A DNA stretch of 64,000 nt from Desulfamplus sp. (GTDB lineage Bacteria > Desulfobacterota > Desulfobacteria > Desulfobacterales > Desulfobacteraceae). The position numbers and the translations under genes are program-made. Shown here piece by piece: positions 3,868 through 48,993 of the stretch (positions within the stretch are counted from its first letter, which is position 1; each line of letters begins with the position of its first letter). The stretch covers positions 186,001 through 250,000 of the forward strand of contig JADFZQ010000003.1 of NCBI GenBank assembly GCA_015232455.1. The letters run 5' to 3'. A model generated the notes under the pieces. The model saw only the letters and a list, made by a program, of their open reading frames with translations, was not told the DNA's origin and searched no databases.

Positions 3868-4698
3868 ATGTCAGATAAAGATATTTTTTTTATCAAGTTA
3901 CGAGAATTTGTAAAAACACTTAAACAAGAAGTAAGCTCTGAAGATGGTCAATGGACAATAAAAGGGTTTATAGATATTTATAAAAATGTTTATACAATTT
4001 CATCTGACACCAAAATAGTATCAAAAATATTAGAAATTCACCTATTTCCTAAAATTTTAAAGTTTTCACAAGATATCGGATATAATATTGTTTTGGCTGA
4101 CCATCAAAATTACTATCCAGATTTATCATTTGTGAAATCTGATAATCAATCAATTAAATTTGCAGTAGATTTCAAAACAACATACAGAACTCCATCAAAG
4201 CCTCATTTATGTAACGGTTTTACACTTGGTTCTCATGGCAAATATTTTGAGAATCGAACGAGTAATAAAAATATTCAATTCCCTTATGGGTCATATTCCG
4301 GACATTTCTGCTTAGGAATTATTTACGATCGAGTTGACAGCTCATCAATTGATGAAACAAAAACTCACAATATAGATGAATTGATATCAATCAGTTCTGT
4401 TATTAAAAATATTCAGTTCTTTGTTACAGAAAAATGGAAAATCGCAAGCGATAAAGGTGGTAGTGGAAACACCGCTAACATTGGAAGCATAAAAAACATT
4501 AATAATATCATCAATGGTAATGGTATGTTTTCAAAATTGGGTGAGTCTTGGTTTGATGAATACTGGATGAATTACAAAAAGATCAACATTCCAGATAATA
4601 AACTTGGAAGTAGAAAAATATTAAATCTAAAAGAGTTTGTTGAATATAAAGGTGGAGATGTTTCGTTAATTGTTGATAAAGGAGATGCAGAAGAGTGA
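3868..4698 (+). CDS. EcoRV-like type II restriction endonuclease (predicted GATATC)
   Basis: A 276-residue relative of R.EcoRV. Key EcoRV features recur in order: SDTK followed by a Glu (E56, equivalent to E45), the Q-loop region QNYYPD with D85 (equivalent to D74), VDFKTTY with D101 and K103 (equivalent to D90 and K92), and the R-loop [12 protein letters not shown] at 197-208, almost the EcoRV recognition loop AGSGNTTNIGSI. The catalytic PD...DxK set is therefore intact and the base-contacting loop retained, so cleavage within GATATC is predicted. That specificity is inference from loop identity, recalled without alignment software. It starts with ATG after AAAAGGAG, 24 bases after dxs, and its TGA overlaps the methyltransferase GTG (4695-4698). 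No controller (C) gene is visible. Confidence 0.93.
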
Positions 4699-5606
4699 TT
4701 TTCAAAACTTATGTCCCTCCTATTAAATCTCAAGGGATAAAAACAAAATTAATACCTTGGATTAAAAGTATTATCTCTGATGATTTTAAGGGGACTTGGG
4801 TTGAGCCATTTATGGGAACTGGGGCTGTAGCATTTAATGTCGCACCTAAAAGAGCTATTCTATCTGATACCAACCCTCATTTAATTAATTTTTACTCTCA
4901 AATAGCATCTAATAAAATAACTCCCGAAATTGTTAAATCATTTTTGCAAAAAGAGGGCAAATTGCTTTTAGGGAAAGGTGAAGATCACTATTATTTTATT
5001 AGAGATAGATTCAATAAAGAACACGAACCTTTAGACTTTCTGTTTTTGAATCGAGCAGGTTTTAATGGAATGATTAGATTTAATCGTAAGGGAGGATTCA
5101 ATATTCCTTTTTGTAGAAAACCAGAGCGTTTTGCCCAAGCATATATTACAAAAATAACTAACCAAATTGCTTGGGTGTCAAATACAATTGCCTGCGGTAA
5201 ATACCAGTTTATCTGCCAAGATTTTAAAGAGTCTATAAAAATGGCAGCTAAAAATGATATTATCTATTCTGATCCACCTTATATAGAAAGGCATGTTGAT
5301 TATTTTAATGGCTGGAATGAAAAACATGAGACCGAACTTTACACTTATTTATCCAATTTTGATGGGCATTTCATTTTATCAACTTGGCATCACAATGATT
5401 ACAGAGAAAATGAATATATCAAAACCCTTTGGTCTGATTTTCATATTTTGACCAAAGATCATTTTTATCATGTTGGCGGAAACGAAAAAAATCGTAATCC
5501 AATGGTAGAAGCACTAATTACAAATTTCATACCGATTAGTAAAGTTTATGAGTTTCCAAAACCTATTCAATATGAATTGCTTGAAAAACAGAGAATATAC
5601 AGTTGA
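4695..5606 (+). CDS. EcoRV-type DNA adenine-N6 methyltransferase (D12 class, alpha)
   Basis: The cognate modification enzyme transfers a methyl group from SAM to adenine N6 and so protects GATATC sites from the neighbouring nuclease. Motif X-like [18 protein letters not shown] lies at 8-24, the SAM-binding motif [15 protein letters not shown] at 35-48, and catalytic motif IV DPPY at 193-196. This order (X, I, target recognition, IV) is that of Dam/M.EcoRV alpha-class enzymes. The length, 303 residues, is normal for the group. The start is GTG at 4695, overlapping the nuclease stop as GTGA; AAGGAG lies about 12 bases upstream inside the nuclease gene. Its own stop overlaps the tlyA start (TTGA, 5603-5606), so R, M and tlyA are probably translationally coupled. 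Confidence 0.95.
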
Positions 5607-9699: not shown

Positions 9700-9785
9700 G
9701 TCTGAATCAGGATACCCAAGATAAAAGGATAAAGCATGATAACCTATCCTTAATATCCGTTAATCCTGATCATCTTGATTCAGAC
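9700..9785. repeat. Family-2 palindromic repeat, copy 1
   Basis: Outer arms GTCTGAATCAGGAT (9700-9713) and ATCTTGATTCAGAC (9772-9785) are complementary except at one position. The interior holds further GGAT/ATCC pairs (AAAAGGATAA, CTATCCTTAA). Same family as the copies at 14414-14503 and 15590-15679. Confidence 0.75.
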
Positions 9786-10084: not shown

Positions 10085-13000
10085 ATGGCGACAATAACTA
10101 AAACCACAGACGTGTCAGCATTAACAACTGAAGAGATATCTACATTAGTAAAAAGCGATATATCTAAACTAACTGCGGAACAGACAGCAGCATTAACTAC
10201 TGACCAAATTCAGGCATTATCTACATCAGCAGTAGCAGGTTTTTCTAAAAAACAATTTGACGGCATGGAAACCGAAGATTTTGCCGCACTCACAGGTGAG
10301 CAAATTGCAGTATTAACTAACACTCAAGTAAAAGCTCTACCAACTTCACTTGTAGCAGCATTTACTACATCTCAAATTTCTGAATTATCAGTAAAAGCAG
10401 TTACAGGTTTCACATCAACACAAATTGCAGCAATGCAGACAGAAGATTTAGTAAAAATATCAACTGCACAGCTCGTCAAAATGACAGCAACACAGTTAAA
10501 AGGATTAACAACAGAGCAGGTAGCTGCTTTGGAAAATGATCAAGTAGCATCTTTAAGTGCTACTCAATTTAAAGGGCTTTTGCCAGAACAAATAACAGCT
10601 TTAACCACTGAACAAATACCTTCTATAACTCCAGCAGCAATAGCTTCAATGACATCAAGTCAATTTCAAGCAATGGAGACAGCTGACTTTGCGAAATTGG
10701 ACGGCTCTCAATTTGCTGCATTAAAAGCAACACAGTTAAAAGGACTAACAACAGCACTTGTTAATAATTTAACCGCTGATCAATTAGCAGCAATTACATC
10801 TACACAGATAAAAGGTTTTTCTGTAGAACAGATTGCTGCATTAAATGCTACAACAATAACATCACTTAGCAACTCTGCATTAGGTGGATTGAGTGCTAAA
10901 CAGATTGCTGGTATGGAGACAACTGACGTTGCAGCACTATCAGTTGAGCAAGTTGCTTCATTAAAAGCAACTCAAATAAAAGGTTTTACGTCAGAGCAAA
11001 TTGCAGCTTTAACATCTGATCAGTTAGCTGGATTGGGAACAGCAGCACTTGCAGTGCTTAGCACAACTCAAATTGCAGCAATAGAGACAGGCGATCTTAA
11101 TGATCTTACTACAGCTCAGCTTGCTTCATTAAAAGCAACCCAAATAAAAGGGTTGACAACAGAGCAGATTCCAGCACTTACAACTGATCAGGTTGCAGCA
11201 ATAACATCTGCACAAGTTAAAGGGCTAACAACTGCCCAGATCGTTGCTCTTGACTCAAATCAGGTTGCAGCTCTTAGCACAGCAGCAATAGGAGGATTAA
11301 CCACAGCACAAATTGCAGCTATAGAAACTGCTGATTTTGATGCTTTAACTACAGCACAGCTTGCGGTATTGAAAGCAGCACAAGTTAAAGGAATTACATC
11401 TGGACAGATGGCAGCATTAACATCTGATCAAGCCGCTGGTTTAACTACAACAATATTGTCATCACTTAGCACAACACAGCTTGCAAACATGACAAGCACA
11501 ACATTTAATGCTTTAACAAGCACTCAAATTGGCTCATTGAAAGCAACTAACATAACTGGTTTGACATCAACTCAAATAGCAAATATGTCCCCAGATTATA
11601 TTGCAGCACTTAGCACAGCACAGATTGCAGCTCTTACATCAACTCAAATTGACGGATTTACAACTAACCAAATTGAAGCATTAACAACAAACCAAATATC
11701 AAAGCTTAGCACTGCAGCAGTTGCATCACTTAGTGATACACAGATAGCTAAGATAGAAACCGTTGATCTTGCTAAAATGACTACAGCTCAAATTGCAAAA
11801 ATAGCTACTGATGTTATTGATAATCTTACTTCTGATCAAATTGCAGCTCTTACAACTGCACAAATTGCGGCTTTAACTACAGTGCAAGTTGGACAGATAA
11901 CTGCTACTCAAGTCGATGCTTTAACTACAGCTCAAGTTGCAGCATTAACAACATCTCAAATGCCACAATTTACAGCAACAGCAATTGCATCACTTGACTC
12001 TACACAACTTGGAGCAGTTCAAGCGGCTGATTTTGCAAAATTGACCACAGATCACATAGCAGCATTGACTACTGATGCTTTAGCAGGCGTTACATCTGCC
12101 CAACTTGCGGCAATGTCAACTACCTCTTTTGCAAAACTTGATTCAACCCAGCTTCCAGCACTGCCGGCAGCAGCAATGGAAGGAGTTACATCAACACAGA
12201 TTGACACTTTAGATGCTACAGAAACTGCTCTAATAACTTCAGCTCAAGCTGCCAAACTAAGCACAGCAGCTATAGGTTCGCTTGACTCTACACAACTTCA
12301 AGCTCTTACTACAACAGCGGTAGAGGCATTAACAACATCGCAGGTATCTAAACTGACTGCTACTCAACTTACAGCTTTATATACCCAGACAGCTCCAAAT
12401 GGTTATACTAAATTAAACAATAGTATTGAAACTTCTCTTACAATAGCCGGAACTTCATCAGCAGATACTATTGTAGGTGGTGATGGTGTTCAAGTAGTTA
12501 CAGCCGGTGAGGGAAATGACACTATAACAGGTGGTGCTGGTGCTGACGACATAACAGGCGGTGCTGGTGCTGATACATTCAACGTTGATGATGACACGGA
12601 TCTTATTAAAGACCTTGGAACTGGTGCTGATGTTCTTATTTTAGATGAAGATGCTGATGGAGCAACAGTTACAGTAACAGGAGATTGGACAGCAACTTCA
12701 GCGTCAGCAAATAATCATGCAACTGCCCGCCCAGCTTTAACTGGTAATTTCGACATCAATGTTGCAGCAGCAACTGGTGTTAGTGGTTGGGATATAACTG
12801 CCAGCGGGGCAGCAGGATATACTTTGGTTGGTTCAGTTAAAACTGATTCGATTACAGGTGGTACGGGTAAAGATACTATTACAGGCAGCGGTGGTGCTGA
12901 TACTTTAGTTGGTGCTGCTGAGGATGATACAATAACTCTGAAAGATTTTGCGACTACAACTACAAACGTTAAGGTTGATGCTGCTGGTGATGATGATATA

Positions 13001-14332
13001 GTAACAGTATCTGCTGCCCAAACAGGGTGGAATACCGCTGATAGTATTATCGGTGGTGCCGGCACGGGTGATGAATTGATATTGCTTGCTGGTGGTAGTG
13101 TAGCAATAACAGACATGACAAATTTGGCAGGTTTTGAGACTTATACATTTGGATCACCATATTCATATACTATAACTTCTACAGTAACAGCTCTGCATAC
13201 AACTGGTGGTGGCACTGTTACTTTTGATGCTTCAGCATTAACGAGTGGTAAGCTGACATTGGATCTTAGTTCTTTAAGTACAGATAAAGCATCTGTAACT
13301 GGTGGTGCTGGGAATGATACTATAACTGGTGGTGGACTTGCGGCTGGAGATACCATTAAAGGTGAAGCTGGTAATGACTCAATTTCAGGTGGTGCGGGGA
13401 CTGATAGTCTTGTTGGTGGTGCTGGTAATGATACCTTTACAGGTGGTGCTGCGGCTGATACATTCGTTGTAGATGCTGGAACAGATACCATAACAGACCT
13501 TGGACTTGCTGCTGATATTGATGTTCTCATTGTGTCTTCTGGAGCTACTGTTGTTGCTACAGCAGGTGGAGATTGGACAGCAGGTGGAACTTCAAGTAAT
13601 GCAGGCACAGCGACTATTATTGCTGATGGTAATGATATTGATCTAACTACGGCTGTTGGAACAGTTGGATGGACGATAACAAATGATGGCAATGCTGCTG
13701 CTGCTACTTTGACAGGTGATGCTAATGCAGATATTATTATAGCTGGTGATGCTGGTGCTGGAGACACAATTGCTGGTGCTGCTGGTAATGATACAATAAC
13801 TGGTGGAACAGGAACGGATAGTATTACTGCTGGGGCGGGTGATGACTCAATTATTATTACTGAAAGTGTTGATGCAGCCGATACAATCGTAATTGGAGCT
13901 TTTGCCACTAATGGCGTGGATACTATAACTGGTTTTACGGCAGGTGCTACTGCTACCGATTCCATTGATTTTACGGCTGCTGGTGTAATGTTGAATACAG
14001 GCACAGCGGCTCTACTATCAATTACAGCCGGAACTACGGCTGGTGCTGGTGATGATAATATTCTAATTATTGCTGCGTCCTATAAAAAATATGACTCTTT
14101 AGCAGAATTGAATGCGGACACTGCATTAGATACTGGTACAGCTACTTTTGGTTCTGGTATTGCTGGTGCTGGTGCTAATATTATCCTTGGTTGGCAAGAC
14201 TCTGCTGGTGCTACTCACTTTGGTTATGCTGTTATTGATAACACTGGAGGTATCTCTGGTAGTGTAACCGAGCTTGTCAAAGTTGTCGGCGTAGCAGCTG
14301 CTACTTTTAATGTTAATGATTTTGCAATCTAA
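10085..14332 (+). CDS. Giant octapeptide-repeat / RTX calcium-binding secreted protein (possible S-layer or adhesin)
   Basis: A 1415-residue, Thr/Ala-rich, cysteine-free protein without an N-terminal signal peptide. Residues 13-764 are 94 consecutive octads with no register break (typical unit LTTAQIAA: L at 1, T/S at 2-3, Q at 5, I/V/L at 6). An acidic variant octad, METEDFAA, recurs at 61, 117, 197, 277, 333, 413, 557 and 645, every spacing a multiple of 8. Residues from about 790 carry four clusters of RTX nonapeptides (GGAGADDIT, GGAGNDTIT) that bind Ca after secretion. Between them is a duplicated module of about 85 residues. The C terminus ends in hydrophobic FNVNDFAI, as in type I secretion signals. 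Export by the SapC/TolC/ABC/HlyD operon at 40656-46290 is inferred. The ribosome site AAGGGGG is very strong. Confidence 0.9.
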   Translation: MATITKTTDVSALTTEEISTLVKSDISKLTAEQTAALTTDQIQALSTSAVAGFSKKQFDGMETEDFAALTGEQIAVLTNTQVKALPTSLVAAFTTSQISELSVKAVTGFTSTQIAAMQTEDLVKISTAQLVKMTATQLKGLTTEQVAALENDQVASLSATQFKGLLPEQITALTTEQIPSITPAAIASMTSSQFQAMETADFAKLDGSQFAALKATQLKGLTTALVNNLTADQLAAITSTQIKGFSVEQIAALNATTITSLSNSALGGLSAKQIAGMETTDVAALSVEQVASLKATQIKGFTSEQIAALTSDQLAGLGTAALAVLSTTQIAAIETGDLNDLTTAQLASLKATQIKGLTTEQIPALTTDQVAAITSAQVKGLTTAQIVALDSNQVAALSTAAIGGLTTAQIAAIETADFDALTTAQLAVLKAAQVKGITSGQMAALTSDQAAGLTTTILSSLSTTQLANMTSTTFNALTSTQIGSLKATNITGLTSTQIANMSPDYIAALSTAQIAALTSTQIDGFTTNQIEALTTNQISKLSTAAVASLSDTQIAKIETVDLAKMTTAQIAKIATDVIDNLTSDQIAALTTAQIAALTTVQVGQITATQVDALTTAQVAALTTSQMPQFTATAIASLDSTQLGAVQAADFAKLTTDHIAALTTDALAGVTSAQLAAMSTTSFAKLDSTQLPALPAAAMEGVTSTQIDTLDATETALITSAQAAKLSTAAIGSLDSTQLQALTTTAVEALTTSQVSKLTATQLTALYTQTAPNGYTKLNNSIETSLTIAGTSSADTIVGGDGVQVVTAGEGNDTITGGAGADDITGGAGADTFNVDDDTDLIKDLGTGADVLILDEDADGATVTVTGDWTATSASANNHATARPALTGNFDINVAAATGVSGWDITASGAAGYTLVGSVKTDSITGGTGKDTITGSGGADTLVGAAEDDTITLKDFATTTTNVKVDAAGDDDIVTVSAAQTGWNTADSIIGGAGTGDELILLAGGSVAITDMTNLAGFETYTFGSPYSYTITSTVTALHTTGGGTVTFDASALTSGKLTLDLSSLSTDKASVTGGAGNDTITGGGLAAGDTIKGEAGNDSISGGAGTDSLVGGAGNDTFTGGAAADTFVVDAGTDTITDLGLAADIDVLIVSSGATVVATAGGDWTAGGTSSNAGTATIIADGNDIDLTTAVGTVGWTITNDGNAAAATLTGDANADIIIAGDAGAGDTIAGAAGNDTITGGTGTDSITAGAGDDSIIITESVDAADTIVIGAFATNGVDTITGFTAGATATDSIDFTAAGVMLNTGTAALLSITAGTTAGAGDDNILIIAASYKKYDSLAELNADTALDTGTATFGSGIAGAGANIILGWQDSAGATHFGYAVIDNTGGISGSVTELVKVVGVAAATFNVNDFAI

Positions 14333-14400: not shown

Positions 14401-14413
14401 ATTTGCTGCGGTT

Positions 14414-14503
14414 GTCTGAATCAGGATGGTCAGGATAAAAGGATTTTTCAGGATTGGGTTTATCCTGCCCTATCCTTCTATCTTGGGTATCCTGATTCTG
14501 AAT
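14414..14503. repeat. Family-2 palindromic repeat, copy 2
   Basis: The left arm GTCTGAATCAGGATGGTCAG is complementary to the right arm ending ATCCTGATTCTGAAT, with inner GGATTTTTCAGGAT against ATCCTGCCCTATCC. It lies immediately left of the PD-(D/E)XK-like gene. Relative to copy 4 (15590-15679), paired positions change together. Confidence 0.8.
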
Positions 14504-14603: not shown

Positions 14604-15536
14604 CTAATTTTGAACATTCAGCCACTCTTTTTCAAGGGAATCATACTGGGATTGAAGTTCACTTATGTTTTTTGCCAGCAGTTCAGTTTTTATTGATACC
14701 GTCTTTTTGAGTATTTGCTGGAGTAACTGTATTTTTCCTATGAGTTCTCCTTTTTTTTCTCCTTTTTTCTCTCCTTTTTTCTCTCCTTCTTGAAATCCTT
14801 TTTCTTTTCCTAACATAAACTGTGCGTGAAACTCAGGAGGAAAATGGTCTTTAAGAAACATCTCATGTGTGTATGGCATATTAACCCCCTCTAATGAATA
14901 GTGGTTATAAAGTTCATTTATGTATGAGCTGACTTTTTTTAAGAGCCAGCCATCTTTTTTAAGTCTTTCAGTGCTTTTTATTATCTGTTCTGTTTTATTG
15001 GAAAACAGCCCTAAAATTGGGTGGTCAAAGTTATTTGTAATAATGAAGCGGACAGGCGTAAACACCTTAAAATCATAAATCCTGTTTTCTGTAATGCACT
15101 CCAAAAACTTTGTATTTTTGTATCTGCTGAAGAGCTTTTCTGGAAAATGGTGCGTTACGGCATAGAGATTTATCTTCTCTTCTTTATCCTCAAGATTGTT
15201 CATCTTTTTGTAATTTGTGAAGTGTCCGTAAAACTCCTCAATTGCTGTCTGGTTAAATGACTCGTTGAAAGATTTGAAGGATATGAGATTATGCAGATTT
15301 AAGTTTTCAAATCCTTCATAGTAATCGGGGTTTACGCCATCAAAATTTATCGGCTCATCTTCTAATTTAGTTACAACAACCATATCAAGCAGCTGTGATT
15401 TTAAGGAAAGGTCAAACTCAACGGTTACTTCGCACTTAAGCCTCTCAAAAAGAGGAGCAATCATTAAACCCCAAAGCCTGTGCCAGTTTGTTTTGTTCTC
15501 TTTATCTGTGTTGTTTGTATTTGTGTTATTTTTCAT
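14604..15536 (-). CDS. PD-(D/E)XK-nuclease-like / Rpn-related protein
   Basis: A 310-residue protein of the widespread PD-(D/E)XK-like family that ends in GEKKGEKKGE-type tails (relatives are annotated as Rpn/transposase-like nucleases or as hypothetical). The N-terminal core WHRLWGLMIAPLFERLKC is followed by the acidic strand LLDMVVV (D51) and NLISFKS (K88). The Glu expected two residues before that Lys is Ser here, so nuclease activity is doubtful. The C terminus has three GEKK repeats and a predicted coiled coil (residues about 255-305). It is enclosed by family-2 palindromic repeats on both sides and sits alone between genes of other function, as in a small mobile or hitch-hiking cassette. 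Confidence 0.72.
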   Translation of the reverse strand: MKNNTNTNNTDKENKTNWHRLWGLMIAPLFERLKCEVTVEFDLSLKSQLLDMVVVTKLEDEPINFDGVNPDYYEGFENLNLHNLISFKSFNESFNQTAIEEFYGHFTNYKKMNNLEDKEEKINLYAVTHHFPEKLFSRYKNTKFLECITENRIYDFKVFTPVRFIITNNFDHPILGLFSNKTEQIIKSTERLKKDGWLLKKVSSYINELYNHYSLEGVNMPYTHEMFLKDHFPPEFHAQFMLGKEKGFQEGEKKGEKKGEKKGELIGKIQLLQQILKKTVSIKTELLAKNISELQSQYDSLEKEWLNVQN

Positions 15537-15589
15537 AGCTGTAATTTAAGCAGAGCGGGGATATTTTGCAAGGGAAAAGAGAGGGTGTT

Positions 15590-15679
15590 GTCTGAATAAG
15601 GATAGTCAAGATATAAGGATTTTTAAGGATTGTGGGTTTATCCTGCCTTATCCTTTTATCTTGGGTATCCTTATTCTGA
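15590..15679. repeat. Family-2 palindromic repeat, copy 4
   Basis: GTCTGAATAAGGATAGTCAA pairs with the right arm ATCCTTATTCTGA; inner AAGGATTTTTAAGGATT faces TATCCTGCCTTATCCTTTT. Compared with copy 2, GAATCAGGAT has become GAATAAGGAT on the left and ATCCTGATTC has become ATCCTTATTC on the right, so pairing is preserved. It lies on the other side of the PD-(D/E)XK-like gene. Confidence 0.8.
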
Positions 15680-15760
15680 ATTTTAATGGTGTTTGTGAAC
15701 TTTTACTCTTGGATAAAACAAAAAGCCACCTTTCCGTGCTAATCGGGGATTAAGCCTTTA

Positions 15761-17119
15761 CTAAAGTCTTTGGATTATATACAAAAAAGTAGGAACTCGA
15801 CTTAAAGTTTTAAGCCTATTAAATTCAAAAAGCACTTCACGAGAAGGTTTGTTGATACGAAGTGGAGAGAGATAAACAGTACCCTTTGTCTTAGGTTTAT
15901 TGATTTTTTCCCGTACAAGCCCTAAAAATGATGGATAATGACCTTTTGGAAGATTCTCGTCCATAATAAAATTTGCTGTGATTTCAATGTTGTTCAAAAG
16001 TGCATTTAATCTCTGAATCTCCATAAAAGCCTCTTCAACCATTGATGAAGTAAGCGGCTTTCCTATAAAATCAAGAGTCTCTTGATCTGCTGATTCAAGC
16101 CCAATATTTATATATGTTTTATATGGCAAACTATTAAGAGCTTTGAAAAGTTCAAAATCACAATTCATAAGAGAGTCAACACTACCAAACATAAAGAGAT
16201 TGCAGCTTTTTATATAAGATTTCTCAAACTCAAAAGAGCTGTAAGCAGCTTTAGCAGCAGATATTATTGTCTCTTTATCTGAATTTAGAGCATCGTGATC
16301 TCCAAGGAAAATAGAATTATAATTAAGAATGTCCCTGCCATATATATTTTTTAATTTTTCAATCTGTTCGCTTATCTCTCCATCACTTCTAACTGCAAAA
16401 GGTTTGTCAGATTTGACACGGCAAAATCTACATTTATATAAACACCCATCAGATATAATTAACGGTATTATATCATAATCAACGTGGCGGGCGTCAGGTG
16501 GCATAACTGTTATTCTTCCGCCTGATGTGTCAAATAGATAATCTGCTTTTTTCTGGAGGTTTTCAGAGTTATTTGTCAACGCAGATTCAAGAAAATTTAT
16601 AAAATTTTCTTTATCTGCCAATAACTTTATACTGTCTGATCTTATACTATCTAATGATTTGTAGATAATTTCCTGCCATGATGAAATTATCTTATTAATT
16701 GAGGGTTCATTAAGTGGCTTACCACCAATTAATGAATTTGTTGGATATGGAAGGTTAGGAAGATAATACTCACCAATAGCTTCAAAGACCCCTGTATAGC
16801 CGCCTGTTGAGTAATATATCCAATCATTGCCCATTGATCGCTTAAGCCATTCAGAAGGCTGAATCCAATCTCTACCTTTACCCTTTGCCCTTACGATCTC
16901 ATGGTTTAGGTTAAATTGCAGTATGGCATCAGAGGTCTCGATTTCAGAATAGATGCCATACTTTAATGGAAAACTAATTTTTGTATATTCATCTGCACCT
17001 CTTTTGTTTAAGGTAATTTTACAATAAGAGGTTGACAACTGGCTTGCAGCACTACCAATAGAGATAGGTTGTGAACCAGTTGATAATGAGTTTTCTGCTA
17101 ATAAGGAGTTAAACAACAT
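15761..17119 (-). CDS. Radical SAM protein, function unknown
   Basis: A 452-residue protein with the cluster motif CLYKCRFC (Cys226, Cys230, Cys233, CxxxCxxC) that binds the [4Fe-4S] cluster and SAM. A TIM-barrel-like region follows with INIGLESADQETLDFIG, as in Elp3/HemN-type B12-independent radical SAM enzymes. The first 220 residues form an unassigned domain containing GYTGVFEAIGEYYLPNLPYP. Substrate unknown. It is downstream of the acyl-CoA ligase on the same strand, separated by 120 bases holding a strong hairpin, so it may have its own transcript. Confidence 0.85.
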   Translation of the reverse strand: MLFNSLLAENSLSTGSQPISIGSAASQLSTSYCKITLNKRGADEYTKISFPLKYGIYSEIETSDAILQFNLNHEIVRAKGKGRDWIQPSEWLKRSMGNDWIYYSTGGYTGVFEAIGEYYLPNLPYPTNSLIGGKPLNEPSINKIISSWQEIIYKSLDSIRSDSIKLLADKENFINFLESALTNNSENLQKKADYLFDTSGGRITVMPPDARHVDYDIIPLIISDGCLYKCRFCRVKSDKPFAVRSDGEISEQIEKLKNIYGRDILNYNSIFLGDHDALNSDKETIISAAKAAYSSFEFEKSYIKSCNLFMFGSVDSLMNCDFELFKALNSLPYKTYINIGLESADQETLDFIGKPLTSSMVEEAFMEIQRLNALLNNIEITANFIMDENLPKGHYPSFLGLVREKINKPKTKGTVYLSPLRINKPSREVLFEFNRLKTLSRVPTFLYIIQRL

Positions 17120-40655: not shown

Positions 40656-42053
40656 TTATAAAGTCTCACGAAGCGAGTTATCAAGATTGAGAAGAATTGG
40701 CTCCATAAGATAGTGTAGAAATGTTCTCTCCTCAGACTCTATAAAGCAAGTTGCAGGCATACCGGGAGATAGCCAAACTGAATGTTTTTCAAGCTCGGTT
40801 TTAGGAACTTTTACATGTATAATGTAAGAACTTGTAACTTGACCATTAGGTAGTCTTTGCTCAACACTATCTGCTGAGATGTATGAGACAAACCCTTGCA
40901 TTGGCGGCGTTGTAATGCGGTTAAAAGCTGCAAGCTGAACTTTAGTAGCCTGATCAAGATATACCTTAGTTATCATATCTTGCCTTAGTTGGGACTCAAT
41001 AATAAGATCAGCATTTTCAGGAACAATATAAAGCAGAGGTTCTCCGGGTCTAATAACTCCTCCATGCTCTGAATGGATAGCAAGATTTATTACAATACCA
41101 GTTGCTGGTGCCCTAATTGACAGCCTTTCATCTGCGTCTAACTGAGGAGAGAGCTGCATACTTATCTGGAAAATCTCATCTTTTACACGACTTAACTCAG
41201 TTGCCGCCTGCTGCCTGTAATCATTTTCTAATGATAAAATCGAAAATTTAATCTCTTCAATACTTACCTTAGACTCTGCAATCACCTGCTCAAGACGTCC
41301 TTGCTCACCTTTTTGTTGGGCAAGCTGCCTTCTAAGTGTGAGAAGCTGCGCCTTATCCATATACCTCTCTTGTGCAAGTGGTGCTTTTGCTCTAATCTCT
41401 TCATCAAAAGAGCGGATTATCTCTTGATTTGATCTAAGCTCATTCTGTGTCCCTTCTATTTTTTCCTGAAGCTGACGTGTACGCGTTTCAAGACTTGAAA
41501 TACGGCTCTCCAAAGATAGCTTAGTCTTTTCAAATAGTTTAGCCTCTGCAAGAATTTTTTTATCTAAATCAGGAACATCGCTTGGTAAATCTGTGGGAGG
41601 AGAAAAACTTTTCTTAAAATCTCGCTGTGCTTCAAGCCTCTCTGCTTCAATCATTTTAGCCGCAAGTCTTCCTTTAAGAAGAGCAACAGAGGCAGTAACT
41701 TGAGAGCTTTTTAGCTTAATTAGAACATCTCCTTGCTTAACTCGATCCCCTTCTTTTACAAGAATTTTACTTACAATTCCCCCTTCAAGATGCTGAACAG
41801 TCTTTTTTTCCTGAGAAACCTTTACAATACCCGGAGCAATTACCGCCCCACTAAATGGAAGGTAAGCAGCAACCCCACCAAGTCCACCAAAAAATATCAA
41901 AACTACAAAGAGTCCAGCCACAATAACTCTTGCTGGTCTTGGTTTGTAAGTTTGTGTCATATCATTTTTCAATGCTACAGCGTTGTTTAATGCCAGACTA
42001 CTTTTTGGAACTTTTTTTATTGGAATTTTTGCTAATGGAGTTTCGTTTGTCAT
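40656..42053 (-). CDS. HlyD-family membrane fusion protein of a type I secretion system
   Basis: A 465-residue periplasmic adaptor. A cytoplasmic N terminus is followed by one membrane helix (about 44-66, VAGLFVVLIFFGGLGG). The biotinyl-lipoyl-like half motif IVSKILVKEGDRVKQGDVLIKL, a long alpha-helical hairpin (about 120-290, coiled coil) and the beta-barrel part (LSIRAPATGIVINL, VQLAAFNRI) complete the HlyD/PrtE plan. It bridges the ABC exporter and TolC channel. It starts 2 bases after the ABC gene and is the last gene of the operon sapC-tolC-ABC-hlyD. The probable cargo is the octad-RTX protein, by inference only. Confidence 0.95.
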   Translation of the reverse strand: MTNETPLAKIPIKKVPKSSLALNNAVALKNDMTQTYKPRPARVIVAGLFVVLIFFGGLGGVAAYLPFSGAVIAPGIVKVSQEKKTVQHLEGGIVSKILVKEGDRVKQGDVLIKLKSSQVTASVALLKGRLAAKMIEAERLEAQRDFKKSFSPPTDLPSDVPDLDKKILAEAKLFEKTKLSLESRISSLETRTRQLQEKIEGTQNELRSNQEIIRSFDEEIRAKAPLAQERYMDKAQLLTLRRQLAQQKGEQGRLEQVIAESKVSIEEIKFSILSLENDYRQQAATELSRVKDEIFQISMQLSPQLDADERLSIRAPATGIVINLAIHSEHGGVIRPGEPLLYIVPENADLIIESQLRQDMITKVYLDQATKVQLAAFNRITTPPMQGFVSYISADSVEQRLPNGQVTSSYIIHVKVPKTELEKHSVWLSPGMPATCFIESEERTFLHYLMEPILLNLDNSLRETL

Positions 42054-42054
42054 A

Positions 42055-43881
42055 TCAGTTCACCAATCCTTTATTTATATCTAATGGCTGAGGTAATGCA
42101 GTTTTATTGGTATTACCAGAACCAGTTTGTGGATTGCCACCGCCGTTTCCACCACTTCCGTTACCGCCAAAAGGCTTTACAGCTCCACCTGCTACAGGAG
42201 GTGCTTGTTGTGGAGGTGCCGGAGCGGGAGCTTGAGGTTGTCCTGCAATCTGGATAATCTCATGGCGTGGACCAAATCGTGCCACCTGACCATATTGCAT
42301 AACCAAAATCTTATCTACAGATATAAGAATAGATGGCTTATGTGTTACAATTATAGTTGTAACCTTTTCATGTTTTAGAATGGCGATTGTCTGCATCAGT
42401 GCCTTTTCTCCAGCCTCATCAAGATTTGAGTTAGGCTCATCAAGAACAACAAGTCTTGGGTTTCCATACAAAGCCCTTGCCAACGCTATTCTTTGTCTCT
42501 GTCCACCTGATAAGACCACACTTCCAGGTCCACCGCCAAGCATTGTGTCATATCCATTTGGAAAATGTTGGATAAGTTCATGCACCCCTGCTTTTTGGGC
42601 TGCAAGAATAACAGCCTCTGGATCAATCTCGCCAAGCCTTGCAATATTTTGGCTAACTGTTCCTGGAAAAAGCTCTACATCTTGAGGCAGGTATCCAATA
42701 AATTTTCCAAGATGCTCTTGATCCCAAGTATAAACATCTGAACCATCAAGGCGGACCTTTCCACCCATTGAGGGCCAGATGCCAAGCAACACACGGCTTA
42801 AAGTTGTTTTACCAGCACCGCTTGGACCAATTAACCCCATAATTTCGCCAGGGGCTAAAGAGAATGTGATGTTACGAAGAAGATAATTACCATTTACAAC
42901 AAGAGAAGCTGCCTCAACATCTAATTTTCCAACAGGGTCAGGTAGTGTCATTGGAACACGGTTATCAGCCTTTTTAATAAGATCATTTAAACGCTTATAT
43001 GAAGATCGGGCTTCAAGGGTCATCTTCCATGTTGACATTGCCTGATCAACAGGAGCTAAAGCACGACCCATAATAATTGATGATGCTATCATTACACCCG
43101 GTGTACACTCATTTTTTAAAGTTAAATATGCACCAACACCATAAATTATAACCTGCATTCCAGTTCTAAAACTTTGGGATATTGCCTGAAGAACACCAGC
43201 AGCGTTGCTTGCTTTAGTCTGAAGCGTAATAACTTGGTTATTTAGAGATTGCCACCTTGCATTAACTCCACCAAGCATTCCCATTGACCCTACAGCCTCA
43301 CTGTTTCTAAGGCACAAAGAGGTAAAATTGCCAGCAGCATTATTTATGTTGTTTGCCATCTCAAGGCGTTTGCGTGTAAGAAGCTCTTGGGTAATACCAA
43401 GAATAAAGACCACCACAACTCCGCCAGTAGCAACCATTCCCATTTTAGGGTGGACCATATATACAAAGAGCAGAAAAATAGGCATCCAAGGCATATCAAA
43501 TAGAGCAAATATGGCATTTCCTCCAAGATAGTTACGCAGAATGTTTACATCTCTTAACCCTGCTGAATATCCAGATTTTTGAATACTACAGCTATCTTTT
43601 AGCATCTCCTTAAAAACTGGGCTTGAAAGAGAGTTATCAATATCAACGCCAGCCATTACAAGCAGTCTTGATCTAAGAAAAATCAAAACCGAATCAACAA
43701 ACAGTGCAAAAATAGCAGCTACAGTAATAGTCATCAAGGTTGGCATACTGTAAGAGCTTAAGACCCTGTCATAAATTGCCAACATGTAAACCGAAAAGGT
43801 CAGGCTCAATATGTTGATAAACATACTGAAAATACCAGCAAAGATAAAATACTTGGACCACTTTAAAATAAATTTTGTCAT
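42055..43881 (-). CDS. Type I secretion ABC exporter (PrtD/HlyB-like)
   Basis: A 608-residue half-transporter: six-helix membrane domain (about 12-285), then an ATPase domain with Walker A GPSGAGKTT (352-360), the Q-loop, the signature LSGGQRQRIALARAL and Walker B LVVLDEPNSNLD. It lacks an N-terminal C39 peptidase or CLD, as PrtD/AprD/SapD exporters of RTX proteases and S-layers do. The C-terminal 60 residues are a Pro/Gly/Asn-rich tail not found in most homologues. It energises export of C-terminally signalled proteins. Directly upstream of hlyD. Confidence 0.95.
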   Translation of the reverse strand: MTKFILKWSKYFIFAGIFSMFINILSLTFSVYMLAIYDRVLSSYSMPTLMTITVAAIFALFVDSVLIFLRSRLLVMAGVDIDNSLSSPVFKEMLKDSCSIQKSGYSAGLRDVNILRNYLGGNAIFALFDMPWMPIFLLFVYMVHPKMGMVATGGVVVVFILGITQELLTRKRLEMANNINNAAGNFTSLCLRNSEAVGSMGMLGGVNARWQSLNNQVITLQTKASNAAGVLQAISQSFRTGMQVIIYGVGAYLTLKNECTPGVMIASSIIMGRALAPVDQAMSTWKMTLEARSSYKRLNDLIKKADNRVPMTLPDPVGKLDVEAASLVVNGNYLLRNITFSLAPGEIMGLIGPSGAGKTTLSRVLLGIWPSMGGKVRLDGSDVYTWDQEHLGKFIGYLPQDVELFPGTVSQNIARLGEIDPEAVILAAQKAGVHELIQHFPNGYDTMLGGGPGSVVLSGGQRQRIALARALYGNPRLVVLDEPNSNLDEAGEKALMQTIAILKHEKVTTIIVTHKPSILISVDKILVMQYGQVARFGPRHEIIQIAGQPQAPAPAPPQQAPPVAGGAVKPFGGNGSGGNGGGNPQTGSGNTNKTALPQPLDINKGLVN

Positions 43882-44059: not shown

Positions 44060-45469
44060 TTACTTTCCAATAGAATTACCTGTCATAAAGTCAAGCTCTG
44101 CCCTTGCCAATTGGTAGTCAAGCAGAGCCTGATTGTAGCTTACCTCTGCACGGGTTACACTAACTTGTGCATCTAACACTTCTGAAACAGTAGCAATTCC
44201 AGCTTGAAAACGTTTATTTTCCATATCGTAATACTCTTTTGACGCTGTTATGCTATCAGATGTAGCTTCAATACGCTCTTCAGCCTCTGATAGAGACATT
44301 AAAGCTGTAACAATGCCAGCCTCAAGTTTGCTTTTGATCTCTTTTACCTGCTCATTTATTCTTTTCATATCTATTTGAGAACGCCTCTTTTCATACCAAC
44401 CACGTCCTCCATCAAAAAGATTCCACGATAAGTTGACCCCCGCACTCCAATAAGTATTACGTTGATCCATGCTTGTTCCTAAAGTACTAAGGCTATCATA
44501 ATCTTTATCTTGATCATAATATCCTGTATTTAATCTCATAAGTGGATAATATTTCCCCTTAGCAAGCTCTACATCCTTTTCAACCATAACCATCTGATGA
44601 GCCAAACTCTTTAAATCTGGTCTTGTATCAATAGCTTTTGCAAGGCACTGTTCTGAGGTCATAGTAAAACCTTGAGAGTAATAATCAAGACCTCCTGAAA
44701 ATGTTACAGAGCTATCAAAAGGTTGATTCATAAGCACAAATAGCTCTGATTTTTTCCTATCAACTGTATTCTTAACTTTGCTAAATTGCTGTTTTATATC
44801 TGCAAGAGCAACCTCTGCCTGTAATACTTTAGCATAAGGGGTCATCTCTTTTTCATAAAATGCCTTTGCTGATTTAACATCAGCTTCAAGGCGTTTTATA
44901 GTATCTACGCCAATCTCAACATCTTGTTTTGCCTTCATAAGTTGAAAATAGACCTGTTTTATTTGGTAGGCAAGCTCTGCTTGAGTATAGGCTTTCTCTT
45001 CAATATACATTTTTTTACGTTCAACTGCTCTATCTCTTGAGTTTATAAGTCGATTTCCAGCATAAAGAACTTGAGAAACACCTATATTATAATTTGTATT
45101 CTGCTGATCAATGTAATCAGAATCAGTAGGACCTGAGGCATCAATACTTTTGATATTATTGTAGTTTGCACCAGCACTCACTGATGGTAAGAAATCAGCC
45201 TTAGCTGCATTTATATCTTCTTGAGCTGCATCTATCATCAATTTAGCAGATGTAAGTTTTGGGTTGTTAGCCATGCCAAGTTTTAGGCAATCGTTAAGAG
45301 AGAGAACTTTCTCACCAGCAAGTGCATCGTTTAAACTCAAGTAACCATAAAAGGAGAGATGGCTCGAAGAGTTGATAGATATAGATATTACAAAGATAAA
45401 AAGATAAGAGAAAATTTTTGATAATTTCAAGATAATCCTCCTTTGTTGGTTACATAGTAGTATTTTCAA
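44060..45469 (-). CDS. TolC-family outer-membrane channel of the type I system
   Basis: A 469-residue outer-membrane efflux protein. A signal-like N terminus ends DALAGEKV, and two OEP repeats of long helices and strands follow (LSLNDCLKLGMANNPKL, RLEADVKSAKAFYEKEM, SWNLFDGGRGWYEKRR, AGIATVSEVLDAQVSVTRAE). It forms the trimeric duct through the outer membrane. It lies between sapC and the ABC gene with a 178-base gap to the latter in which I see no gene. Confidence 0.93.
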   Translation of the reverse strand: MKILLCNQQRRIILKLSKIFSYLFIFVISISINSSSHLSFYGYLSLNDALAGEKVLSLNDCLKLGMANNPKLTSAKLMIDAAQEDINAAKADFLPSVSAGANYNNIKSIDASGPTDSDYIDQQNTNYNIGVSQVLYAGNRLINSRDRAVERKKMYIEEKAYTQAELAYQIKQVYFQLMKAKQDVEIGVDTIKRLEADVKSAKAFYEKEMTPYAKVLQAEVALADIKQQFSKVKNTVDRKKSELFVLMNQPFDSSVTFSGGLDYYSQGFTMTSEQCLAKAIDTRPDLKSLAHQMVMVEKDVELAKGKYYPLMRLNTGYYDQDKDYDSLSTLGTSMDQRNTYWSAGVNLSWNLFDGGRGWYEKRRSQIDMKRINEQVKEIKSKLEAGIVTALMSLSEAEERIEATSDSITASKEYYDMENKRFQAGIATVSEVLDAQVSVTRAEVSYNQALLDYQLARAELDFMTGNSIGK

Positions 45470-45510: not shown

Positions 45511-46290
45511 TCAACTTAGCTGCATACCAGAAAGTGAGTTAGCATGAGAGATGATAAGTGGCATAATTCCTTTTCTAACCCAATCTGCAAGAGTTCCATC
45601 ATCAAGAGAGTTGAGTTTTTGCATATCAATTGTTCTAAAACCACCTACAGAGATATTTTGTCCATTCATGTTTACGTTAAACTGCCTATCAACAAGAATA
45701 TCTTTATCTTCCATTAATTTAACAATATTTGAAGTTATAGACATTTCTCTTTGATATAATTTTAGAAATTCTACAGCTTTATTAGTCATCTCTGTAAATT
45801 GACCATTTGCAGTGAACATTATATCTCCTTGAGGTAATGCAAAATGTGGTGCATCACGATCAATACAGACAACATACTTATCTTGACTTTCAGTTGCACC
45901 AGAAGAGCCGTTCCCGCCTGAATTTGTTGTATCTGAAGAAGATGATTTTGATGCTGAACCCGTGCTTGACAAGGCTTCTTGCGAATCTTCTGAAGGAGCT
46001 GCTTTAACAAGAATAAATGGATATTGTCTAAAATATGCAGGAACGTATGGCACTTTCCATGAACCATCTGGATTTATAAAGTTGTTCTGATCACGATTTA
46101 ATGAAAGCAGCACTACTGGTAAAGCATTACCTTTGAGAAATACAATAGGATAGTATTTTGAAGCGTGTATAAACTCTGAAAATGAGATGGGAGCATTGGA
46201 GACGTTTTTAGCAAAATTGTAATTGTTAACTGATGTAAACCTAATATCCTGATGGTTGTTTTGTGTTAATGGCTCTATTTTTGTAAACAT
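45511..46290 (-). CDS. sapC: SapC family protein
   Basis: A 259-residue protein with the SapC (PF07277-type) core: YPIVFLKGNALPVVLLSL, PDGSWKVPYVPAYFRQYPFIL, DRDAPHFALPQGD. In Campylobacter fetus sapC is the first gene of sapCDEF, whose other three products are a type I secretion system for the S-layer protein; the biochemical job of SapC is not known. The same order holds here (sapC, tolC, ABC, hlyD, with the channel placed second). A Ser/Gly/Asn-rich insert lies at about 105-130 (SASKSSSSDTTNSGGNGSSG). A strong AAAGGAAA site precedes the ATG. Confidence 0.9.
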   Translation of the reverse strand: MFTKIEPLTQNNHQDIRFTSVNNYNFAKNVSNAPISFSEFIHASKYYPIVFLKGNALPVVLLSLNRDQNNFINPDGSWKVPYVPAYFRQYPFILVKAAPSEDSQEALSSTGSASKSSSSDTTNSGGNGSSGATESQDKYVVCIDRDAPHFALPQGDIMFTANGQFTEMTNKAVEFLKLYQREMSITSNIVKLMEDKDILVDRQFNVNMNGQNISVGGFRTIDMQKLNSLDDGTLADWVRKGIMPLIISHANSLSGMQLS

Positions 46291-47484: not shown

Positions 47485-48993
47485 TTAAAATAAAATAGAT
47501 TGCGACCAAAATATAGGTGCAAGCAATTTTGAATTTCCCATTACAGCTATTCCAATATTATAGCTGCCACTTTCAAATCCAGATGTAGAAAAATTTTTCC
47601 AGATTCCTTTTCCTAAATCACTAAATAACAGAACACTCAGCCCTTTATTATAAAGATTTAATGATGCAATGGATACAACTCCGTTAACACTGTCTCCCAT
47701 CCACAATCCATAGCTGTTAAGCCACCATATAGACTCATAAGTTTTATTGTTTAAACTATATTGTAATGTATCTGCATTGCCTTTGTATCGATTCATCTTG
47801 TATTCATCTAACAATGAACTTTTAATAAGTGCAATATAGACATCAGTATAATAGTCAGTAGGTGGAAGATAACAGGAAAGTTCAACTTTTGTAAGATTTT
47901 TTTTAGCAATGATTGAGGGTGCAGCTAATCTTTTGATACCACTTCCGCTTAAAACCCCCCATCCAAACTCATCATCTCTTCCATTATCTCCTAAATCTTT
48001 TGCACTGCTGAAAATAAGATTTTCAATGGTTGTGAGTTTAAGATTTGGGTTCATTCCAAGAAGGGCGGCAACTGCACCTGAGACAACGGGTGTACTAAAT
48101 GATGTTCCAGTAACAAAAACTGTTTCTCCACCAATTCCTATGGTTTCTACAGACTTACCAGGAGCAGTTATATCAATAGAATCGCCTATCGGAGAGTTCC
48201 ATAAAATAGAGGTTCCTTCAGGATTAGTTGCCCCAACCGTTACAACCTCTTCCATGGTTCCGGGAAAAGAGATACTGTATGGGCTATTGCCAGCAGCACT
48301 AACTACAATAACTTCATTTTTAATAGCATAGAGTATAGCAGTTTTTACATCATTGCTATCATTTGCAAGGCTTAAACTCATATTTATAATATCTGCCCCA
48401 TTTTTTACAGCATAATAAATAGCATTAACTACTGCATCGGTGTAAAAAGTAGTAGATTTACCCGAATTTATCTTAATAATCATAAGCTCTGCGTCTGGAA
48501 CAGACTTTAAAACTATTCCAGCAACATTAGTTCCATGTCCATTTTGATCTGTAATACTATTACTATTGTCACCAAAATTCCAACCATGTATATCATCTAT
48601 ATAACCATTTGAGTCGTTATCTACACCATCGTTATCTATACCATTGAAGTTTTCATCTGATATTTCATTCAAAGTTTTATCATTCAAAAGCTCTGACTTG
48701 TTTTGCCATAATGCTGATGCAAAAATGGGATTATTAGTATCAACTCCAGAATCAATCAAAGCAACAATAACACCCTTACCTGAAGATAAAATAGCAAGAT
48801 CAGATAGCCCAACAACATCTGACCATGAATTTGCAGCTTTATTACTTCTATTTTCCAAATAAAAAGCCCAGTCAGAAGAGTAAACTGACTGGGCATAAGA
48901 AGAGATTTTTAAAACAAAAACCGTAATAAAGATATTTAATAAAGAAAAAGCAAAAACGAATGATACTTGTTTAGTAGTTAGTATATTTTTCAA
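47485..48993 (-). CDS. Secreted subtilisin-like serine protease (S8)
   Basis: A 502-residue protein with a signal peptide (about 8-36) and the S8 catalytic triad Asp81 (VALIDSGVD), His153 (NGHGTNVAGI) and Ser298 (GTSFSTPVVSG). The segment NFNGIDNDGVDNDSNGYIDD before the His motif is acidic and Ca-binding-like, common in secreted S8 enzymes. About 150 residues after the catalytic domain are unassigned. There is almost no propeptide. It is exported by Sec and could be a type II secretion substrate or process surface proteins. It lies 18 bases before the GspC-like gene and 54 bases after the CAP gene on one strand. Confidence 0.93.
   Translation of the reverse strand: MKNILTTKQVSFVFAFSLLNIFITVFVLKISSYAQSVYSSDWAFYLENRSNKAANSWSDVVGLSDLAILSSGKGVIVALIDSGVDTNNPIFASALWQNKSELLNDKTLNEISDENFNGIDNDGVDNDSNGYIDDIHGWNFGDNSNSITDQNGHGTNVAGIVLKSVPDAELMIIKINSGKSTTFYTDAVVNAIYYAVKNGADIINMSLSLANDSNDVKTAILYAIKNEVIVVSAAGNSPYSISFPGTMEEVVTVGATNPEGTSILWNSPIGDSIDITAPGKSVETIGIGGETVFVTGTSFSTPVVSGAVAALLGMNPNLKLTTIENLIFSSAKDLGDNGRDDEFGWGVLSGSGIKRLAAPSIIAKKNLTKVELSCYLPPTDYYTDVYIALIKSSLLDEYKMNRYKGNADTLQYSLNNKTYESIWWLNSYGLWMGDSVNGVVSIASLNLYNKGLSVLLFSDLGKGIWKNFSTSGFESGSYNIGIAVMGNSKLLAPIFWSQSILF

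What the first reader, a model, noticed from the sequence alone, without database searches (positions are those of the whole stretch)
10121..12376. 94 uninterrupted octapeptide repeats in one secreted protein
Residues 13-764 keep an exact 8-residue register (L-T/S-T-x-Q-I/V-x-A/G) with no insertion or deletion. A special acidic octad (M/I-E-T-x-D-F/L/V) recurs at 61, 117, 197, 277, 333, 413, 557 and 645, so a higher-order repeat of 7, 10, 18 and 11 octads overlays the first. Each unit has a Thr/Ser N-cap and could be a short helix in a superhelical rod, or a novel solenoid. I cannot name a family with this structure.
Basis: seen in the sequence. Interest (0 to 1): 0.8.

Follow-up and report, generated by a model that had tools for sequence, protein, structure and literature searches.

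The report
Exported rod of 94 helical octads
One bacterial gene encodes a protein whose first half is 94 unbroken eight-residue units, each predicted to be one tiny helix in a coiled rod; it belongs to an existing, seemingly little-studied repeat family whose genes often sit beside a sugar-attaching enzyme, which suggests sugar-coated surface rods.

Summary
In detail: residues 13-764 of the ORF at 10085-14332 are 94 gapless octads. The family is not new: Pfam PF20080, ALTTAQ repeat (E 5e-119), followed by RTX repeats. A solved chain, HeliScrew4, carries similar octads. AlphaFold2 predicts about one short helix per octad (pLDDT 89). The nearest solved natural fold is mesothelin, with low TM-scores.

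The acidic-octad spacing recurs in homologues. The strongest repeat period is 3.39 octads here and 3.3-3.6 in 48 of 80 other ORFs; I read it as one superhelical turn, about 27 residues.

A PrtD-type type I secretion set plus SapC lies in the window. ALTTAQ genes often adjoin an OGT-like GT41 glycosyltransferase: 28 of 74 named loci; 26 of 26 shared plasmid records within 10 kb. This genome, the only clear ALTTAQ carrier of 86 in its family, has a GT41 grouping with five ALTTAQ-linked ones, not with its genus's.

Best reading: a type-I-secreted, probably O-glycosylated surface rod. Export and glycosylation are inferred, not shown.

The parts
10085..14332 (+). ALTTAQ-repeat / RTX protein, 1415 aa
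   Evidence: single ORF; PF20080 E 5e-119 and PF00353 E 4e-27
10121..12376 (+). 94 gapless octads (residues 13-764), predicted about one short helix each
   Evidence: AlphaFold2 on residues 13-412, pLDDT 89.4
10265..12040 (+). span of the eight acidic octads (residues 61, 117, 197, 277, 333, 413, 557, 645), spacings 7,10,10,7,10,18,11 octads
   Evidence: 7/10/17 spacing also in homologues
12377..14332 (+). RTX (calcium nonapeptide) half and C-terminal end
   Evidence: PF00353, 6 stretches; low-confidence model with many short strands, pLDDT 55
40656..42053 (-). type I secretion adaptor (HlyD)
   Evidence: TIGR01843, 313.7 bits, cut-off 208.65
42055..43881 (-). type I secretion ABC transporter, PrtD type; the only one over that model's cut-off in this genome
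   Evidence: TIGR01842, 652.9 bits, cut-off 510.15; genome search
44060..45469 (-). TolC-family outer-membrane protein
   Evidence: PF02321 E 2e-63; TIGR01844 143 bits, below its cut-off of 225.15
45511..46290 (-). SapC-family protein
   Evidence: PF07277 E 2e-57

Best explanation
The gene encodes a modular surface protein. Its first 764 residues fold into a long solenoid in which each octad is one 4-6-residue helix led by Thr/Ser (AlphaFold2 prediction for residues 13-412). About 3.4 octads, or 27 residues, make one superhelical turn (inferred from repeat periods), so the acidic octads spaced 7, 10 and 17 apart line up as a stripe along one face. The RTX half is exported by the PrtD/HlyD/TolC system 26 kb away and folds on calcium outside (inferred from what is known of RTX proteins). 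Before export a cytoplasmic TPR-GT41 enzyme, encoded on contig C3 of this genome, most likely adds sugars to the many Thr/Ser of the octads (inferred from gene linkage and phylogeny). The result is a sugar-coated rod at the cell surface, in an adhesin, S-layer or mucin-like role. The gene and this GT41 look acquired: neither has a clear counterpart in the genus genomes searched.
For: Family. Similar octads in a solved chain. Fold. Period: 3.39 octads in the window protein (spectral score 0.62, 95% of shuffles below 0.55) and 3.3-3.6 in 48 of 80 other ORFs; spacing shared with Pseudomonas and Rhodovastum. Export: RTX half, T1SS genes plus SapC in the window, one PrtD over cut-off in the genome, PrtD in 9 of 10 genus genomes, this one included. 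GT41 link: all four first-fetched plasmid loci; 28 of 74 named loci, with gaps of 0-1447 bases between stop-to-stop frames in the 27 where an ALTTAQ frame was scored; 26 of 26 shared plasmid records within 10 kb, 3.3 expected at random. Own GT41 (C3, PF13844 E 8e-92) groups with five ALTTAQ-linked GT41s at 100/99, 100/99 and 100/100, is 50-54% identical to them, and is rejected as kin of the genus's GT41s (AU p 0.0006), one of four of which lies near a flagellin gene. ALTTAQ in a long frame in 1 of 86 family genomes.
Against: No export, glycan or localisation data. The T1SS is 26 kb away and genus-wide, although the RTX half is found in only 1 of 86 family genomes, so it must have other substrates. 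Another RTX frame exists on contig C10. In this genome the GT41 is on another contig, so linkage is not direct. 46 of 74 named loci show no GT41 in the fetched stretch, though many are cut by contig ends. ALTTAQ similarity does not track GT41 similarity (Spearman 0.05, n=31). 18 of 80 ORFs peak at 2.35-2.5 octads and 14 elsewhere. GT41s also occur on plasmid records without a listed ALTTAQ match, and unlinked chromosomal GT41s were hardly sampled. The AU group was named after the first tree was seen. Model coordinates could not be read to measure the turn.
Confidence: 0.5

Rival explanations
1. An ordinary unglycosylated RTX S-layer or adhesin protein in which the octads are only a spacer rod; the GT41 link in other genomes reflects general clustering of surface-protein and glycan genes.
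For: T1SS genes with SapC in the window; RTX half; GT41s also lie near other surface-protein genes: YadA-like, calcium-binding, flagellin.
Against: GT41 lies within 0-1447 bases of the ALTTAQ frame in 27 loci, across Pseudomonas, Rhizobiaceae, Geobacteraceae and Verrucomicrobiales, and this genome has a GT41 of an ALTTAQ-linked kind unlike its genus.
Confidence: 0.3
2. A leucine-rich-repeat-like or beta-solenoid fold rather than a helical one.
For: phmmer reports weaker LRR chains (5a5c E 8e-7) and Pfam lists LRR_EndoS below its cut-off.
Against: AlphaFold2 gives helices and no strands over 400 residues; HeliScrew4 is the better sequence match; the best Foldseek matches are helical solenoids.
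Confidence: 0.04
3. The octads form an ice-binding regular array, as some annotations ('ICE nucleation protein') suggest.
For: Some plasmid homologues are annotated so.
Against: Annotation only; the predicted fold is a helical solenoid, not the flat beta-solenoid face that I recall for known ice nucleators (not tested).
Confidence: 0.03

Closest known systems
Pfam PF20080 ALTTAQ repeat proteins
   Same: octad L-T/S-T-x-Q-I/V-x-A/G in one register, ETxD octads, 17-octad super-repeat
   Different: RTX half: among 92 sampled ALTTAQ frames (many cut by contig ends) the GGxGxD motif occurs in 3; of those I ran through Pfam, the two frames of one Methylobacter MAG have PF00353
HeliScrew4 (PDB 9zem)
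   Same: 8-residue units such as LTPEQIAA, phmmer E 1e-13
   Different: 120 residues; Pro at the third position of many units; whether designed or natural was not learned here; no paper found
Mesothelin (family of stereocilin and otoancorin)
   Same: described as a compact right-handed solenoid of short helices in stacked layers (PMC10035497, passages); 8 of the 16 Foldseek matches with E<=0.001
   Different: TM-scores only 0.17-0.34, rmsd 10-13 A; 24 helices in nine layers; no mesothelin among the sequence matches at E<=10
FlmG and HMW1C cytoplasmic glycosyltransferases and their substrates
   Same: a TPR- or OGT-like enzyme in the cytoplasm modifies an exported surface protein (PMC7591256 and PMC2877744, passages)
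   Different: their substrates are flagellins and the HMW1 adhesin; HMW1C modifies Asn
RTX S-layer proteins (RsaA type)
   Same: N-terminal structural part, C-terminal RTX and type I export (PMC3034196, passages)
   Different: here the N-terminal part is an octad solenoid; no lattice shown

Membership tests
PF20080 ALTTAQ repeat | profile match over the curated cut-off | tested here: met
   388.1 bits against 26.4, 25 stretches
PF20080 ALTTAQ repeat | gapless octads with ETxD octads and higher-order repeat, as in homologues | tested here: met
RTX exoproteins of type I secretion | Gly/Asp-rich nonapeptide repeats near the C-terminus | tested here: met
   PF00353 94.1 bits, 6 stretches
RTX exoproteins of type I secretion | ABC/HlyD/TolC exporter in the genome | tested here: met
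   26 kb from the gene, TolC below its NCBIfam cut-off, genus-wide, so not shown to be dedicated
RTX exoproteins of type I secretion | export through that system | not testable with these tools
   needs an export assay
S-layer protein | two-dimensional lattice on the cell surface | not testable with these tools
   only a SapC-family gene beside the exporter
Mesothelin-like solenoid | structural similarity with a good global superposition | tested here: inconclusive
   Foldseek E 3e-6 and probability 1.00 at rank 1, but TM 0.17-0.34 and rmsd 10-13 A over the eight mesothelin rows
Leucine-rich repeat | strand-turn-helix units | tested here: not met
   no strands in the model of residues 13-412
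GT41 substrate | sugar on Ser/Thr of the octads | not testable with these tools
   needs mass spectrometry

The most novel reading that the evidence does not exclude
ALTTAQ proteins are a widespread class of secreted, cytoplasmically glycosylated helical rods, a bacterial counterpart of mucins on a mesothelin-like scaffold. A TPR-GT41 travels with them between phyla. Their higher-order repeats (7, 10, 14, 17, 24, 27, 31, 34, 41, 44 octads) are all near-multiples of one superhelical turn of about 3.4 octads, keeping the special acidic octads, and perhaps the enzyme's docking sites, in a stripe along one face (two opposite faces where spacings of 5 and 12 octads, 1.5 and 3.5 turns, are used, as in many Pseudomonas proteins).
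Probability: 0.4. Interest if true: 0.75.

Novelty: new member of a known kind. Interest (0 to 1): 0.5.

Why it matters
Octad solenoids of this size are among the simplest long protein folds: one short helix per unit, extended to hundreds of units. If the GT41 link is real, it names a substrate class for many bacterial OGT-like enzymes and makes a simple test system for how TPR enzymes read repeats. The 3.4-octad rule predicts the geometry of the rod from sequence alone and can be checked at once against a solved octad chain.

Tried and rejected
Rejected: a new family (PF20080 matches); an LRR fold; a phage origin (no match in the phage collection); heme use and ice nucleation (annotation words only); ALTTAQ fused to RTX as unique to this genome (two loci of one Methylobacter MAG have it too).

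Led nowhere: a first named-genome scan with the whole protein found no relative. Paper searches for ALTTAQ, HeliScrew and PF20080 found no paper on the family (the 7 hits look off-topic by title). ALTTAQ similarity did not follow GT41 similarity. The model of the RTX half is poor (pLDDT 55). GC3 of the gene is 0.18, the lowest of those compared, but its amino-acid bias confounds this. The end of contig C3 did not match the window in a way that would join the two. A first test for RTX motifs used a threshold of three GGxG[ND]D that even the window's protein fails (it has two); one search replaced it with a count of GGxGxD. A phmmer test with the window's RTX half hit none of 92 frames, not even those with PF00353, so it is too insensitive to use.

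Full report
Observation. The ORF at 10085-14332 (+) encodes 1415 aa. Cutting it every eight residues from residue 13 gives 94 octads with no insertion or deletion up to residue 764. Residue identity at lag 8 is 0.293; 500 shuffles over 96 lags never exceed 0.160. Octad order is not random: lags 17, 27, 10 and 7 stand out (z 6.6, 5.0, 4.2, 3.7).

Identity. Pfam PF20080 (ALTTAQ repeat) matches with 25 stretches and 388 bits; the second half carries RTX repeats (PF00353). Among solved structures, phmmer finds 9zem, HeliScrew4, 120 residues of LTPEQIAA-like octads, E 1e-13. I found no paper on it or on ALTTAQ (the library holds openly licensed PMC papers only).

Fold. AlphaFold2 without an alignment on residues 13-412 gives pLDDT 89.4 and pTM 0.76. 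It draws 48 helices of four or more residues over 50 octads, 47 of them 4-6 residues long and one of 10, and no strands. Foldseek against the PDB puts mesothelin first: 8 of the 16 matches with E<=0.001, probability 0.99-1.00. But TM-scores are 0.17-0.34, so this is local similarity of a coiled stack of short helices, not a global match. Mesothelin is described as a right-handed solenoid of 24 short helices in nine layers (PMC10035497, passages). 9zem was not among the 50 rows shown; the structure library ends in April 2026. The model of residues 645-1415 is poor (pLDDT 55), but keeps helices to about residue 784 and then short strands.

Higher-order repeat. In homologues from Pseudomonas and Rhodovastum plasmids many ETxD octads are also 7, 10 or 17 octads apart; others, such as Cereibacter (10, 14) and P. 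asturiensis (5, 7), differ. For the window protein alone the strongest period of octad self-similarity is 3.39 octads (score 0.62; 95% of shuffles below 0.55; 21 of 300 shuffles peak at 3.3-3.6). It was too short for the survey of 80 other ALTTAQ ORFs (those with at least 60 motif octads and 80 in runs of 20 or more), where the strongest period is 3.3-3.6 octads in 48, 2.35-2.5 in 18 and other in 14. Proteins with different super-repeats (10/14/24, 7/24/31/38, 10/17/27/34/44) agree on about 3.4. My inference: this is the superhelical turn (27 residues). The 2.4 value, half of whose 18 rows are Pseudomonas proteins with spacings of 5, 7 and 12, would be its second harmonic folded by whole-octad sampling, meaning two opposite faces. 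The rows share ancestry, any 17-octad repeat has harmonics at k/17, and I could not read coordinates, so the link to geometry is a prediction.

Surroundings. On the other strand, 26-32 kb away, stand HlyD (40656-42053), a PrtD-type ABC (42055-43881), a TolC-family protein (44060-45469) and SapC (45511-46290). The ABC gene is the only one over the PrtD cut-off in the genome, and 9 of 10 genus genomes, this one included, have one. S-layer RTX proteins with an uncleaved type I signal are known (PMC3034196, passages). The genome has one more RTX frame, on contig C10, which I did not study.

Distribution. PF20080 was matched in 4 of 86 genomes of the family, 3 over the cut-off, but the three others are in short frames (31-145 aa). 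Of 395 genomes drawn from the phylum only this one and one other match. The RTX half alone has no match at E<=1e-15 in the other 85 family genomes. Among plasmids 58 of 72,556 records match, 41 of them Rhizobium, Shinella or Cereibacter; phages none. The gene therefore looks acquired, or lost elsewhere. Copies of a dispersed element of about 90 bases flank it (9700-9785, 14413-14501, 15586-15695).

The GT41 link. All four plasmid loci first fetched carry, next to the ALTTAQ gene, a TPR protein with a GT41 domain (PF13844), the family of SPINDLY, which resembles O-GlcNAc transferase (PMC9715652, abstract in a listing). A GT41 search found 99 plasmid records, 60 shown; 26 of these 60 also carry ALTTAQ, all 26 within 10 kb (3.3 expected at random placement). 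The query was itself an ALTTAQ-linked enzyme and many records are close relatives, so the P value in that call is not to be taken literally. In 74 named loci, kept from 453 confirmed matches, 28 have a GT41; in the 27 where an ALTTAQ frame was also scored the gap between stop-to-stop frames is 0-1447 bases. Forty-six show none, and many loci end in or near the ALTTAQ gene. Seven of 74 have a type I-like ABC gene at E<1e-50.

The own GT41. This genome has a TPR-GT41 on contig C3 (PF13844 E 8e-92) and a weak one on C18. In trees of 49, 46 and 49 catalytic domains the C3 enzyme groups with five ALTTAQ-linked enzymes (Gallionella, Nitrosomonadales, Aquabacterium, Burkholderiaceae, SZAS-77) at 100/99, 100/99 and 100/100; rows dropped for long branches or poor placement: 0, 3 and 5, with five unlinked controls added in the last. 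Four GT41s of genus relatives form a separate clade, one of them near a flagellin gene; holding C3 with them is rejected (AU p 0.0006; the group was named after the first tree). In 26 of the 28 GT41-linked genomes, searched whole, the five are 50-54% identical to C3 over about 600 residues (665-760 bits); the next scores 442 bits, and the highest other identities (45-48%) are over the shorter catalytic stretch. Two of the five genomes have further GT41s, which score far lower (149 against 721 and 346 against 704 bits). Controls against: the plasmid relatives ranked highest for C3 (Azospirillum, Collimonas) are not among the 58 ALTTAQ records, though they fall outside the clade, Collimonas next to it; unlinked chromosomal GT41s were hardly sampled; ALTTAQ and GT41 similarities are uncorrelated (Spearman 0.05, n=31).

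Position. In 4 of 5 genus relatives examined, a response-regulator gene faces the radical SAM gene directly (regulators matched by the start of their sequence). Here what looks like the same regulator is followed by the C3 GT41, and the contig ends about 210 bases later, while the radical SAM gene (15761-17119) has 14604-15536 and the ALTTAQ gene on that side. So both genes that look acquired abut the same opened junction. This suggests, but does not show, that they arrived together.

Verdict. Ordinary as to family, unusual as to what the family seems to be: a very long helical rod, exported by a type I system and probably glycosylated by a partner enzyme. The rod is predicted, the export inferred, the glycosylation a hypothesis with genetic support.

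Noticed in passing
3868-5606 (+): EcoRV-family restriction endonuclease (PF09233 E 2e-120) with an adjoining D12 class adenine methyltransferase; low GC (0.29-0.32) against 0.36 for the window.
   Followed up: no
9700-9785, 14413-14501, 15586-15695: Copies of a dispersed, partly palindromic element of about 90 bases flank the ALTTAQ gene, also found on contig C18.
   Followed up: partly
L142 5139-9013 and window 15761-17119: A regulator/radical SAM junction seen in 4 of 5 genus relatives is open here, with the GT41 on one side and the ALTTAQ gene on the other.
   Followed up: partly
L069, L077, L086, L117, L125, L135, L136 and others: Several Burkholderiales ALTTAQ proteins end in an often acidic stretch closing with PLI or PLL, possibly an export or sorting signal.
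   Followed up: no
L099: A Magnetaquicoccus ALTTAQ protein favours even octad lags (a 16-residue repeat), unlike the six others compared.
   Followed up: no
G496 contig C20 48886-61618: The Pelobacter genome of L109 has a run of seven GT41 matches, six in one 3750-codon open frame.
   Followed up: no
plasmid CP117533.1, 13681-15852: A Spiroplasma endosymbiont plasmid encodes a 25% identical match over 95% of the octads; possibly convergent.
   Followed up: no
47485-48993 (-): Subtilisin-like serine protease (mycosin model, below its cut-off) with one gene between it and SapC.
   Followed up: no
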